A DNA stretch of 38,361 bases from NCBI GenBank assembly GCA_902802575.1, contig CADCMN010000018.1, positions 1-38,361 on the forward strand, in the 5' to 3' direction. The translations under genes and the position numbers were made by a program. Below, piece by piece: positions 1-38,361 of the stretch (its first letter is position 1; each line of letters starts with the position of its first letter). Below the pieces are notes generated by a model. The model saw only the letters and a list, made by a program, of their open reading frames with translations, searched no databases and was not told where the DNA came from. The DNA is from an uncultured Eubacteriales bacterium. Its GTDB lineage: Bacteria > Bacillota > Clostridia > Christensenellales > CAG-138.

Positions 1-369
1 CTCATATACGGTCATATGGGGGTACAGGGCGTAGTTCTGGAAGACCATGGCGATGTCCCGATCCTTGGGCGGGATGTCGTTCACCAGCTTGCCGTCGATC
101 AAAAGCTCGCCGTCGGTGATCTCCTCAAGACCGGCGACCATCCGCAGGGTCGTGGACTTGCCGCAGCCGGAGGGGCCGACCAGCACGATGAACTCCTTGT
201 CGGCGATGTCCAGGCTGAACTGCTGGACGGCCACCACGCCCTCGTCGGTGATCTGCAGGTTGATCTTCTTTTGGGGCTGATCGTCCGCCTTCTTCTTGGC
301 CTTCTTCTGTTCGCCGCTGATGTAGGGATAGACCTTCTTGATGTTCTTGAGTTGTACAGTTGCCATCAT
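1..369 (-). CDS. Sugar ABC transporter ATP-binding protein, MsmX/MsiK/UgpC type (partial, N-terminal part)
   Basis: Only the first ~120 residues are inside the window; the gene continues past base 1. The Walker A motif GPSGCGKST and the Q-loop stretch [12 protein letters not shown] are visible, which identifies a CUT1-family carbohydrate-importer ATPase. Between the first beta strand and Walker A there is a lysine-rich insertion ([16 protein letters not shown]), seen in clostridial multi-sugar ATPases as I recall them. Two adjacent in-frame ATGs (A at 369 and at 366) can start it; neither has a good Shine-Dalgarno sequence. It lies downstream of the cellobiose phosphorylase gene on the same strand. 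The importer at 4184-7399 has no ATPase of its own, so this protein probably energises it, and perhaps other importers, at the inner face of the membrane. Confidence 0.93.
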
Positions 370-546
370 TCTTGCTCATGACGGTTCGGCCTTCGCGTCC
401 CCGTCTCGCCCATGGGAAGCTTTCACCCGTGGGCTTTACGGCAGGTCTCCACACTGCCGCACCGCTGAACAAAGCGGGATTCTCCTTTCTTTTATCCCGC
501 CCGCGGGCATGAAGTGGAGTGCGTCGCGGGCCGGGGTAAGTCGTAG
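370..546 (-). promoter_or_regulatory. Structured leader / intercistronic region ahead of the ABC ATPase gene
   Basis: This 177-base gap, read on the minus strand, contains successive hairpins. GGCAG pairs with CTGCC. GCCCA-GGG pairs with CCC-TGGGC around a GAAAGC loop region. GACGG pairs with CCGTC immediately before the start codon. There is an AAAGGAG at about 483-489 but no long ORF in a useful frame. No promoter is convincing. I could not match it to a known riboswitch class. It could be a translational control element, an mRNA-processing site, or simply G+C-rich spacer. Confidence 0.3.
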
Positions 547-35913: not shown

Positions 35914-35943
35914 TTGACAATAGCGAAGGGATAGCGCTATACT
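35914..35943 (+). promoter_or_regulatory. Promoter of the cobalamin-riboswitch gene
   Basis: A perfect -35 box TTGACA (35914-35919), an 18-base spacer and TATACT (35938-35943) make this the strongest promoter in the window. The transcript would start about 35950, just before the riboswitch. Confidence 0.85.
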
Positions 35944-35962
35944 GAGACAAACAGAATAAAAT

Positions 35963-36140
35963 AGTCGGTGCCTTTGCTGCGATTGAAGACAAAGGGTAAA
36001 AGGGAAACAGGTGAAAGGCCTGTGCGATCTCGTCACTGTATGCGGAAAAGCTTTTCATGCGTCAAGCACGCAGCCACTGGGAAACCGGGAAGGCGATGAG
36101 CAAACTGCCGCCAGCCAGGAAACCTGCCGTCTGTCGGTAC
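35963..36140 (+). promoter_or_regulatory. Cobalamin (B12) riboswitch aptamer
   Basis: The conserved blocks occur in the right order: CGGTGCC (35966 on), AAAAGGGAA (35998-36006), GGTGAAA (36010-36016), the CGTCACTGT block (36031 on), GCCACTGG (36073-36080), GGGAAGGCG (36088 on) and the B12 box GCCAGCCAGGAAACCTGCC (36110-36128). This is a class-I-like cobalamin riboswitch, which normally shuts off the downstream gene when adenosylcobalamin is plentiful. Outer boundaries are approximate. Confidence 0.93.
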
Positions 36141-36193
36141 GGAAAAGTTATTTTCCAGATCACGAGGGATTGATCGTGTACCATGCTCTCACG

Positions 36194-36308
36194 TTGGAGC
36201 GCTTTCTACACGCAGTCTCTTTGCCGTATGGTAAAGAGCTTTTTTCGTGCCGTGGATGTTGCTGATGATATCTGTGAATATACATCGGGGAACGCCAAGG
36301 CGCTCCAA
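36194..36308 (+). promoter_or_regulatory. Riboswitch expression platform with long-range complementarity
   Basis: The leader after the aptamer contains TTGGAGCGC (36194-36202), which is perfectly complementary to GCGCTCCAA (36300-36308) just before the ribosome binding site. The intrinsic terminator at 36217-36245 lies between them. If transcription passes the terminator, this 9-bp pairing could form a second layer of control near the start codon. The role is inferred. Confidence 0.4.
36217..36245 (+). terminator. Riboswitch-controlled intrinsic terminator
   Basis: CTCTTTGCC (36217-36225) and GGTAAAGAG (36230-36238) pair over 9 bp with one G-U, loop GTAT, followed by C and six T (36240-36245). 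It lies about 80 bases before the start codon and directly downstream of the B12 aptamer, as expected for transcriptional attenuation. Confidence 0.9.
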
Positions 36309-36326
36309 AGAAAGAAGGAGGAACAT

Positions 36327-37436
36327 ATGAAAAGAAACATCGCATTGCTCTTGGTCCTCGCCCTGCTGGGCGGCATGATCGCCGCCTGCACCGCTCCGGC
36401 CGCAGAGCCGTCGACCCAGCAACCCACGGAAAAACCGGTCGAACAGGTCACGGAAAAGCCCGCAGAGCAGCCAACGGAAAAGCCTGCGGAGCAGCCCGCT
36501 CAGACCCCCACTGAAGCGCCGGTCGATCCCGATCAGGCGGCCGCCGATCGGGTCGCCGCCCTCATCGACGCCATCTACGTCCAGCAGCGCACCGACACCA
36601 CGGATCTGGACTGCGCCGCCGCCAAGGCCGCTTGGGACGCTCTGACCGACACGCAGAAGGCGCTGGTACAAGGCGAGGAAGCCGATCCCGATTTCTTCGG
36701 CCGCGACACCGGCGACGCCAGCAAGGACGATCCCCGCAACCGCGATGAACACGGTGCGAACGAGCTGCTGGTGGTGAGCTTCGGCACCTCCTTCAACGAC
36801 AGCCGCGCCATGGACATCGGCGGTATCGAGGCGGCGCTGGAAGCCGAGTTCCCGGAGTGGTCCGTGCGTCGGGCCTTCACCGCCCAGATCATCATCAACC
36901 ACGTCCAGGCCAGGGACGGCGAGTTCATCGACAACATGGACCAGGCCCTGGAGCGCGCCGTGAAGAACGGCGTCAAGAACCTGGTCATCCAGCCCACCCA
37001 CCTGATGCACGGCGCCGAATACGACGAGCTGGTGGGCGTCCTGAAGCAATACGAAGACAAGTTTGAAGCCATCGCCGTGGCCGAGCCCCTGCTGGGCAAG
37101 GTAGGGGCGGACGCCTCCGTCCTGAACCGCGACAAACAGACCGTGGCGGAAGCCCTGGTGGCAGCCGCCGTGCAGTCTGCCGGCTTCTCCAGCCTCCACG
37201 CCGCAGATAAGAACGGCACCGCCATCGTGCTCATGGGCCACGGCACCTCCCATGATGCCAAGGTGACCTACAGCCAGATGCAGAACCAGATGAAGCAGCT
37301 GGGGTATAAGAACGTGTTCATCGGCACCGTGGAGGGCGAGCCCGAGGAGACCGCCTGCGAGGCCGTCATCTCCCGAGTCCTGGTACAGCATGTTCCAGGC
37401 CTCCGGCAAGTTCACCGACATCGCCTGCCAGATTGA
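36327..37436 (+). CDS. Exported lipoprotein with CbiK-type chelatase domain (first of two), frame broken near 37370
   Basis: The start ATG 36327 has AAGGAGGAA upstream. A lipoprotein signal ends at Cys21 (MIAAC). A Pro/Thr/Glu-rich spacer of TEKP-like repeats follows (about residues 25-70). A small helical module comes next with AAWDALTDTQKALV, a motif seen in Gram-positive surface proteins. From about residue 145 there is a CbiK-type class II chelatase domain (NELLVVSFGTSFNDSRA, IQPTHLMHGAEYDELV, VLMGHGTSHDA with His305, VFIGTVEGEPEE). After EAVI at 37370 the homology stops and the ORF ends in 22 unrelated residues. Domain homology resumes in the +1 frame at 37372, without about 30 residues that should carry the second metal-binding His. 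The gene is under B12 riboswitch control. Confidence 0.85.
   Translation: MKRNIALLLVLALLGGMIAACTAPAAEPSTQQPTEKPVEQVTEKPAEQPTEKPAEQPAQTPTEAPVDPDQAAADRVAALIDAIYVQQRTDTTDLDCAAAKAAWDALTDTQKALVQGEEADPDFFGRDTGDASKDDPRNRDEHGANELLVVSFGTSFNDSRAMDIGGIEAALEAEFPEWSVRRAFTAQIIINHVQARDGEFIDNMDQALERAVKNGVKNLVIQPTHLMHGAEYDELVGVLKQYEDKFEAIAVAEPLLGKVGADASVLNRDKQTVAEALVAAAVQSAGFSSLHAADKNGTAIVLMGHGTSHDAKVTYSQMQNQMKQLGYKNVFIGTVEGEPEETACEAVISRVLVQHVPGLRQVHRHRLPD
37272..37370 (+). repeat. 99-base exact repeat, copy 1 (identical to 38263-38361)
   Basis: From 37272 to 37370 the sequence is identical to the last 99 bases of the window. It encodes QMQNQMKQLGYKNVF and what follows through CEAVI of CbiK domain 1. The identity stops exactly where the frame breaks. 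Confidence 0.95.
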
Positions 37437-38361
37437 GGGCCTGGGCCGGATCGAAGCCATCCAGAAGCTCTATGTGGACCATGCTCGGACCGCCGTGTAT
37501 GCCCTGGCGCCCGCCAATGAGACCGACGCGGAGGCCGGCGCGCGCGTGGGAGAGCTGATCGACGCCATCTATGTTCAGAATCGGAACGATGAAACCGACG
37601 CCCTGTGCGCCGCCGCCAAGGCCGCTTGGGACGCTCTGACAGACACGCAGAAGGCGCTGGTACAGGGCGAGGAAGCCGATCCCGACTACTTCGGCCGCGA
37701 CACCGGCGACGCCGGCAAGGACGATCCCCGCAACAGCAACGGCATCGGTGAAAACGAGCTGCTGGTGGTGAGCTTCGGCACCTCCTTCAACGACAGCCGC
37801 GCCATGGACATCGGCGGTATCGAGGCCGCTCTCGAGGCCGCGTTCCCCGGCTGGTCCGTGCGTCGGGCCTTCACCGCCCAGATCATCATCAACCATGTCC
37901 AGGCCCGGGACGGCGAGTTCATCGACAATATGGACCAGGCCCTGGCGCGCGCCGTGAAGAACGGCGTCAAGAACCTGGTCATCCAGCCTACCCATCTGAT
38001 GCACGGCGCGGAGTATGACGAGCTGGTGGCGGCCGTCGAAAAGTATGCCAATCAGATGAATATCGTCGTGGCCGAGCCTCTGCTGGGCAAGGTGGGCAAA
38101 AACGCAGCCGAGGTCAATGCCGATAAGGAAGCCGTCGCCCAGGCTGTGGTGGCCGAAGCCGTGAAGAGCGCCGGATTTGAGTCTTTGGAAGCCGCTGACA
38201 AAGCGGGCACCGCCATCGTGCTCATGGGCCACGGCACCTCCCATGATGCCAAGGTGACCTATAGCCAGATGCAGAACCAGATGAAGCAGCTGGGGTATAA
38301 GAACGTGTTCATCGGCACCGTGGAGGGCGAGCCCGAGGAGACCGCCTGCGAGGCCGTCATC
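37372..38361 (+). CDS. Continuation in +1 frame: end of first and most of second CbiK domain (partial at window end)
   Basis: This frame is open for 330 codons to the last base and has no own start signal, so it is the displaced remainder of the lipoprotein gene. It begins with the C-terminal helix of CbiK domain 1 (SWYSMFQASGKFTDIACQIE, GLGRIEAIQKLYVDHA). A second copy of the DALTDTQKALV module follows, and then a second CbiK domain from about 37756 (NELLVVSFGTSFNDSRA, GHGTSHDAKVTY). The two copies are very similar in DNA. If the frame break is an assembly artefact, the true product is one lipoprotein with two or more module-plus-CbiK units. Class II chelatases insert cobalt or iron into sirohydrochlorin-type rings; the activity of this surface form is unknown. 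Confidence 0.8.
38263..38361 (+). repeat. 99-base exact repeat, copy 2, ending at the window edge
   Basis: Identical to 37272-37370; the preceding base differs (T here, C in copy 1). The window ends at the base homologous to the breakpoint in copy 1, which points to a repeat-limited assembly end. Confidence 0.95.

What the first reader, a model, noticed from the sequence alone, without database searches (positions are those of the whole stretch)
35914..38361. B12-riboswitch-controlled surface lipoprotein with tandem CbiK chelatase domains
Seen: a strong promoter, all conserved blocks of a cobalamin riboswitch, a B12-box-proximal intrinsic terminator, then a lipoprotein signal (Cys21), a Pro/Thr/Glu spacer and two module-plus-CbiK units. 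Known: CbiK is normally a single-domain cytoplasmic cobaltochelatase of anaerobic B12 synthesis, and a periplasmic CbiK is known in Desulfovibrio. Inference: a multi-domain chelatase-like protein anchored outside a Gram-positive cell cannot act on cytosolic sirohydrochlorin. It may capture cobalt, or bind or metallate/demetallate tetrapyrroles or corrinoids, when B12 is scarce. No other B12 genes are in the window, so it may begin an uptake locus beyond the edge. This is the best candidate for a new system here.
Basis: partly seen in the sequence, partly recalled or inferred. Interest (0 to 1): 0.85.

Follow-up and report, generated by a model that had tools for sequence, protein, structure and literature searches.

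The report
Surface chelatase-NEAT tetrapyrrole uptake for B12
Many gut bacteria carry, under a vitamin B12 riboswitch, a cell-surface version of the enzyme that puts cobalt into B12's precursor ring, beside ring-binding proteins and an importer, which suggests that they scavenge a half-built B12 ring from outside and finish it inside.

Summary
Unit 1 is frame-broken; three same-genus genomes have the gene as one open frame, so an assembly skip at the repeat is likely. The gene continues on contig C26, where it gains a NEAT-fold domain and leads into a NEAT-fold lipoprotein, an ABC importer and an anaerobic cobalamin operon. The gene order recurs in most of 80 loci from Lachnospiraceae, Faecalibacterium, Blautia and others.

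HemC was not found in 30 of 31 CbiK-bearing relatives, and CobA scored above cut-off in only one; no separate CbiX was found. In 50 named genomes a second CbiK, without an export signal, goes with HemC (15 of 22 with HemC, 1 of 28 without).

Best explanation: under B12 shortage the surface protein captures an outside sirohydrochlorin-like tetrapyrrole, inserts cobalt and passes it to the importer, to be finished inside. Closest known system: P. gingivalis Iht/FetB. Substrate and reaction are inferred. Against: exceptions exist, the association is not significant once ancestry is allowed for, and CbiL was not found in 8 of 15 genomes searched.

The parts
35914..35943 (+). sigma-70-type promoter-like site TTGACA-18-TATACT
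   Evidence: 11 of 12 matches
35949..36145 (+). cobalamin riboswitch aptamer RF00174
   Evidence: 92.1 bits, whole model 1-189
36217..36238 (+). intrinsic terminator stem, followed by a T run: likely expression platform
36327..36389 (+). start of the surface CbiK gene: lipoprotein signal peptide with lipobox IAAC, Cys21
   Evidence: read by eye
36390..36524 (+). Pro/Thr/Glu-rich spacer (limits approximate)
36525..36764 (+). helical module 1 before CbiK unit 1 (limits approximate)
   Evidence: helices in the model of a relative
36765..37370 (+). CbiK unit 1, N-terminal two thirds, in frame with the start
37371..37522 (+). frame break (about 98 nt net missing) and C-terminal remainder of unit 1 in another frame; likely assembly skip
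37523..37758 (+). helical module 2 (limits approximate)
37759..38361 (+). CbiK unit 2, cut by the contig end; continues on G000:C26 minus strand with the CbiK C-terminus, a NEAT-fold domain, NEAT-fold lipoprotein, substrate-binding lipoprotein, FecCD permease, ATPase and cobalamin genes

Best explanation
A B12-repressed surface system that acquires a tetrapyrrole. When B12 is scarce the riboswitch lets the operon be read. The exported CbiK-NEAT protein binds a tetrapyrrole of the sirohydrochlorin type found outside the cell, and its CbiK units insert cobalt (perhaps after taking another metal out). The loaded ring passes through NEAT-fold proteins to the substrate-binding lipoprotein and the FecCD/ATPase importer. 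Inside, the anaerobic cobalamin enzymes of the same operon finish the corrin ring. Shown by computation: riboswitch, export signals, CbiK fold with conserved metal-ligand positions, NEAT folds, conserved gene order, cobalamin operon, and no HemC or CobA found in nearly all relatives searched. Inferred: the substrate, metal insertion outside, the hand-over and the metabolic use.
For: Riboswitch in front of the gene here, in 28 of 28 relatives with a readable exported CbiK, 193-620 nt before the domain, and in 9 of 9 named loci tested. CbiK fold and relatives: FetB, Salmonella CbiK, D. vulgaris periplasmic CbiK; the three metal-ligand positions are invariant in 18 rows. NEAT fold of the next lipoprotein and of the C-terminal domain. 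Gene order: C-terminal domain, NEAT lipoprotein, SBP, FecCD and ATPase in 79, 70, 64, 62 and 59 of 80 loci. Cobalamin operon. HemC in 1 of 31 relatives, CobA above cut-off in 1 of 31, CbiX hits only on CbiK genes. A second CbiK goes with HemC, 15 of 22 against 1 of 28. A separate riboswitch operon in the same genome carries a BtuF/C/D-type importer, so this importer probably has another load.
Against: No substrate or reaction was tested. HemC is present in 22 of 50 named genomes with the system, so it is not confined to ring auxotrophs; 7 of those 22 have no second CbiK. G092 and G050 lack HemC but have only a cytosolic CbiK; G005, G039 and G051 lack HemC but have both forms; G138 likewise; G091 has HemC, CobA and both forms. 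The HemC/second-CbiK link rests on few independent changes and is not significant on the tree. CbiL, the next enzyme after cobalt insertion, was not found in 8 of 15 genomes, so there the ring taken up would have to be a later one, or another enzyme does the step. Both NEAT assignments are below Pfam's cut-off by sequence. HemA, HemL, HemB and HemD were not searched.
Confidence: 0.5

Rival explanations
1. Corrinoid capture: the surface CbiK binds cobinamide or complete cobamides and passes them to the importer; no metal chemistry happens.
For: B12 riboswitch; the permease scores best against BtuC (202 bits, cut-off 334) and the ATPase against a corrinoid ATPase (219.9, cut-off 537); the system also occurs in genomes that have HemC and a second CbiK.
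Against: The metal-ligand positions are invariant; NEAT-fold partners; a separate BtuF/C/D-type riboswitch operon exists; the locus sits with ring-synthesis genes in 21 of 28 HemC-negative named genomes.
Confidence: 0.17
2. Haem or iron acquisition, as proposed for P. gingivalis Iht: the surface CbiK takes iron out of haem and the importer carries haem or iron.
For: Nearest solved relative is FetB; NEAT folds match haem-bound NEAT domains; the SBP profile matches Lmo2184 (E 7.5e-7; its haem role is recalled).
Against: Control by a B12 riboswitch and residence in a cobalamin operon point to B12, not iron.
Confidence: 0.15
3. Cobalt capture: the CbiK units hold cobalt at the surface for a cobalt importer.
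For: CbiK binds cobalt in a solved structure (2xvz, title); B12 control.
Against: The linked importer is of the FecCD/Peripla_BP_2 type; NEAT-fold partners argue for a flat ring.
Confidence: 0.08

Closest known systems
Porphyromonas gingivalis Iht system with IhtB/FetB (PMC10913741, passages; PMC13402209, a review, passages; structure 9b86)
   Same: Surface lipoprotein of the CbiK family with a substrate-binding protein, permease and ATPase; a review says that FetB inserts manganese into protoporphyrin at the cell surface; best PDB match of this family
   Different: Gram-negative with a TonB receptor; ascribed to haem/iron; nothing in the passages read mentions NEAT domains, tandem CbiK units, a B12 riboswitch or a cobalamin operon
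Desulfovibrio vulgaris periplasmic CbiK (2xvx, 2xvz)
   Same: CbiK fold outside the cytoplasm
   Different: Single domain; no NEAT domain; its gene context was not examined here
Cytosolic CbiK (Salmonella 1qgo; NF047852)
   Same: Fold and the three metal-ligand positions
   Different: Cytosolic, single domain, acts on the cell's own sirohydrochlorin (recalled)
Gram-positive NEAT haem-uptake systems (IsdX1, Hbp2, Isd proteins)
   Same: NEAT fold feeding an ABC importer (their role is recalled)
   Different: No CbiK; ascribed to iron; sequence below Pfam's NEAT cut-off here
Tetrapyrrole precursor salvagers (PMC6461909; abstract, passages, section 13 and part 1 of the Discussion read)
   Same: Corrin-ring genes kept, early tetrapyrrole genes lost, mostly Firmicutes
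   Different: In the parts read only ALA salvage was verified and no importer of a macrocycle is named

Membership tests
CbiK chelatase family (PF06180) | Pfam match over cut-off | tested here: met
   147.9 and 140.8 bits, cut-off 26.2
CbiK chelatase family (PF06180) | Three metal-ligand positions (H145, E175, H207 of 1qgo; role recalled) | tested here: inconclusive
   Invariant in 18 relatives. In the window both units keep the first two; unit 1 lacks the third, probably by assembly; unit 2 has it on C26
Sirohydrochlorin cobaltochelatase equivalog NF047852 | Score over the curated cut-off of 400 bits | tested here: not met
   109.6, 111.2 and 59.5 bits on the three fragments; no whole-length protein was scored
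Sirohydrochlorin cobaltochelatase equivalog NF047852 | Inserts cobalt into sirohydrochlorin | not testable with these tools
   needs an enzyme assay
Iht/FetB-type surface chelatase system | Exported CbiK-family protein with SBP, permease and ATPase | tested here: met
Iht/FetB-type surface chelatase system | TonB-dependent receptor IhtA | not tested
   Not looked for with a model; none was seen among the C26 genes read, and none is expected in a Gram-positive cell
NEAT domain (PF05031) | Pfam score over cut-off | tested here: not met
   16.3 and 18.9 bits, cut-off 32.8; 9 of 15 lipoproteins and 11 of 26 C-terminal domains match weakly
NEAT domain (PF05031) | NEAT fold | tested here: met
   Foldseek 3sik E 1.2e-6 for the lipoprotein; 4myp E 2.3e-5 in the model with the C-terminal domain
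NEAT domain (PF05031) | Binds haem or another tetrapyrrole | not testable with these tools
   needs a binding assay
Cobalamin riboswitch RF00174 | Score over gathering cut-off | tested here: met
   92.1 bits, cut-off 31.5
Tetrapyrrole precursor salvager genome | Early genes missing: HemC and CobA | tested here: met
   Own genome (76.8% complete) and 29 of 30 CbiK-bearing relatives: no HemC, no CobA above cut-off
Tetrapyrrole precursor salvager genome | All other upstream genes missing (HemA, HemL, HemB, HemD) | not tested
Tetrapyrrole precursor salvager genome | Complete later pathway, CbiL included | tested here: inconclusive
   Most cbi genes present; CbiL in G001 but not found in 8 of 15 genomes, the own genome among them

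The most novel reading that the evidence does not exclude
Gut Clostridia make B12 by outsourcing its first half: they take up sirohydrochlorin, siroheme or a slightly later ring shed by other organisms, insert cobalt on their own cell surface with an anchored CbiK-NEAT protein, and import the cobalt ring to finish it. The committing step of B12 synthesis would take place outside the cell.
Probability: 0.4. Interest if true: 0.9.

Novelty: new variant of a known kind. Interest (0 to 1): 0.78.

Why it matters
How bacteria that lack early tetrapyrrole genes but keep the corrin-ring genes obtain a ring is open: in the parts read of PMC6461909 (abstract, passages, section 13, part 1 of the Discussion) only ALA salvage is verified and no importer of a macrocycle is named. 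This locus is a concrete candidate and occurs in cultured gut genera such as Faecalibacterium, Gemmiger, Butyrivibrio and Blautia. If right, it adds a new exchange molecule between gut microbes and moves the cobalt-insertion step outside the cell.

Tried and rejected
Rejected: a true tandem gene with a natural frameshift as the likely reading of unit 1 (one open frame in G001, G003, G004; 31-nt contig-end overlap). It is not excluded: G005 of the same genus has a single CbiK domain split between two frames. Rejected: a separate CbiX chelatase (no match in G000; matches in 26 of 31 genomes, all listed rows lying within CbiK genes). A search for the NAD-binding domain of Met8-type enzymes gave only weak matches (best 30.4 bits, frames of 253 aa and more; 14 of 15 genomes); I did not identify them. 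Rejected: HemC loss as a strict partner of surface CbiK (22 of 50 named genomes have HemC).

Led nowhere: paper searches for CbiK with lipoprotein and cobalamin riboswitch (0 papers), for chelatase, lipoprotein, cobalamin, precorrin-2 and Firmicutes (0), for NEAT domain with cobalamin and chelatase (0); two searches gave general B12 papers, seen as listings. Passages of PMC7689651 say nothing on an exported CbiK. The FetB paper PMC13065792 is not held. My home-made B12-box pattern hit 48 of 77 loci upstream (3 hits in 1.06 Mb elsewhere) and missed L175, where Rfam finds a riboswitch.
Full report
WHAT IS THERE. The window (contig C18 of a 2.2-Mb, 140-contig, 76.8% complete genome) ends with a promoter-like site (35914-35943), a cobalamin riboswitch (35949-36145, 92.1 bits), an intrinsic terminator (36217-36238) and an ORF from 36327 with a lipobox at Cys21. 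It holds two copies of a helical module plus CbiK domain; the two longest repeated stretches are 92% (300 nt) and 96% (171 nt) identical. Both CbiK matches are far above the Pfam cut-off.

THE BREAK IN UNIT 1. The frame breaks at 37371. Compared with the copy on contig C26, unit 1 lacks 102 nt and has 4 others in their place; the missing part codes for the third histidine motif. The window end and the C26 end share 31 identical nt. G001, G003 and G004 of the same genus carry the gene as one open frame of 941-942 codons with two whole CbiK domains and no stop, followed on the same contig by the genes that lie on C26. I read this as an assembly skip at a repeat. In G005, same genus, a single CbiK domain is split between two frames, so a real lesion is not excluded.

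WHAT FOLLOWS. On C26 (minus strand) come the CbiK C-terminus with a further domain, a 143-aa lipoprotein, a Peripla_BP_2 lipoprotein, a FecCD permease, an ABC ATPase with a C-terminal extension, CbiB, CobD, CbiD, CbiF, CbiG, CbiH, CbiJ-CbiE-CbiT, then CbiA, CbiP and CbiC (the last three named by reading and by the same order in G001). Curated models: CbiB, CbiD, CbiF, CbiH and each of CbiJ, CbiE and CbiT exceed a cut-off; CobD (268.3 of 290.55) and CbiG (260.7 of 326) fall short. On G001's copies CbiA and CbiP exceed theirs, and CbiC, cut at the locus end, does not (218.6 of 294). The other three riboswitches of the genome precede an importer and nucleotide-loop operon on C14 and two mutase-like genes on C97 and C92 (labels by my reading; the like importer of G004 scores best to BtuC-type models below cut-off).

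RELATIVES. CbiK occurs in 31 of 121 genomes searched, the own genome included. I read, by eye, the ORFs of all but G029 (a 57-aa fragment at a contig end): 28 have an exported form, the own genome included; G050 and G092 have only a cytosolic form; G005, G039, G051 and G091 have both. Tandem units occur in 9 (G000, G001, G003, G004, G006, G052, G057, G061, G064). G001-G005 seem to carry a signal-peptidase-I-type signal instead of the window's lipobox. A riboswitch lies 193-620 nt before the CbiK domain in all 28 (in G064 it is cut by the contig end). In 12 genomes two riboswitches lie back to back between a FecCD/ATPase operon and the surface-CbiK operon.

NAMED GENOMES. They include Lachnospiraceae, Faecalibacterium longum, Gemmiger formicilis, Blautia, Eubacterium ramulus, Butyrivibrio, Pseudoflavonifractor and one Spirochaetaceae MAG. 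Three of 80 are cut at the N-terminus; the other 77 fit my home-made signal pattern (69 lipobox, 8 other); 6 of 80 are tandem. The C-terminal domain, NEAT lipoprotein, SBP, FecCD and ATPase are found in 79, 70, 64, 62 and 59 of 80 (loci cut by contig ends included). Rfam finds the riboswitch upstream in 9 of 9 loci tested.

FOLDS AND RESIDUES. A profile of 18 CbiK-NEAT proteins matches P. gingivalis FetB (9b86, E 1.9e-47), Salmonella CbiK (1qgo, 2.8e-46) and D. vulgaris CbiK (2xvx, 1.7e-35), 3 distinct sequences in all. The residues aligned to H145, E175 and H207 of 1qgo (counted by me on the printed alignment; role recalled) are invariant in the 18 rows. A model of the L102 protein (CbiK domain 83% identical to the G001 query; mean pLDDT 79.7) matches 1qgo (E 1.6e-20), 2xvz, 9b86 and, lower, NEAT domains 4myp (2.3e-5) and 3sz6 (1.6e-4); the aligned range is not printed, but the beta-rich part of the model is the C-terminal one. 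The next lipoprotein's model (pLDDT 87.4) has NEAT structures in all 50 rows shown (3sik, E 1.2e-6). By sequence both stay below the Pfam NEAT cut-off; the two profiles align with each other at 84% probability. Each has an invariant His on the last strand (H117 in PHEIEY, H484 in WYDH), where haem NEATs carry YxxxY (recalled): a candidate axial ligand.

THE MISSING FRONT END. HemC: 1 of 31 genomes (G091). CobA above cut-off: 1 of 31, again G091; weaker matches in all 31 are to other methylases, the best to CbiF-like genes by position and score. CbiX: none outside CbiK genes. CbiL: G001's passes its model (182.5 of 163.25); G006, G047 and G061 have one by similarity to it, G004 and G057 by position and score; G064 has an edge fragment; in the other 8 of 15 (G000, G002, G003, G005, G017, G027, G039, G053) none was found. 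There the ring taken up would have to be a later one, or another enzyme does the step: unexplained.

CO-OCCURRENCE. A second CbiK of the short type is present in 16: 15 of 22 with HemC, 1 of 28 without (Fisher p 9.9e-7). At the domain start 15 of these 16 could be read and none shows an export signal by eye; the sixteenth is cut by a contig end. Two are fused behind an ABC ATPase and a third looks alike. cbi genes lie within the fetched locus in 21 of 28 HemC-negative and 6 of 22 HemC-positive genomes. On a tree of the surface CbiK the two traits change 10 and 9 times, but only 2 independent pairs lie on supported branches (same way 1.3, opposite 0.0 on average), which cannot reach significance.

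MECHANISM. The pieces fit a B12-repressed surface system that holds a flat ring, loads it with cobalt and imports it. In genomes that make their own ring, a cytosolic CbiK would serve that ring and the surface system would be an extra supply; in genomes without HemC the surface CbiK is usually the only chelatase of this class found. Substrate, direction of the metal reaction and hand-over are inference. FetB is a precedent: a review says that it inserts manganese into protoporphyrin at the P. gingivalis surface (PMC13402209, passages; primary paper not held), and the Iht locus has SBP, permease and ATPase (PMC10913741, passages).

NOVELTY. Surface CbiK proteins with an ABC importer are known (Iht). 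The form with NEAT domains, tandem CbiK units, B12 riboswitch and cobalamin operon was not met in searches of the held library; most subscription papers are not held. I call it a new variant of a known kind. PMC6461909 (abstract, passages, section 13, part 1 of the Discussion) defines tetrapyrrole precursor salvagers and reports ALA salvage as verified.

Noticed in passing
window 361-538, minus strand: malK-I RNA (RF03069), 118.3 bits.
   Followed up: no
L184 1501-3195 minus; L185 595-2271 plus; L182: Cytosolic-type CbiK fused behind an ABC ATPase that reads like the cobalt importer's CbiO: cobalt import and insertion in one protein.
   Followed up: partly
G027, G039, G046, G051, G053, G056, G058, G062, G065, G066, G068, G069 (loci L050-L058, L067, L069, L071, L072): Two cobalamin riboswitches back to back, between a FecCD/ATPase operon and the surface-CbiK/SBP operon.
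   Followed up: partly
8 of 15 family genomes: cbi operons without a detectable CbiL, although later ring enzymes are present.
   Followed up: partly
G000:C97 and C92 (L086, L087): Cobalamin riboswitch before near-identical mutase-like genes on two short contigs; perhaps one gene assembled twice.
   Followed up: no
L149: The same locus in a rumen Spirochaetaceae MAG: horizontal transfer or a mis-binned contig.
   Followed up: no
L160 / G160: One genome with two surface-type CbiK genes in frames of 718 and 695 aa.
   Followed up: no
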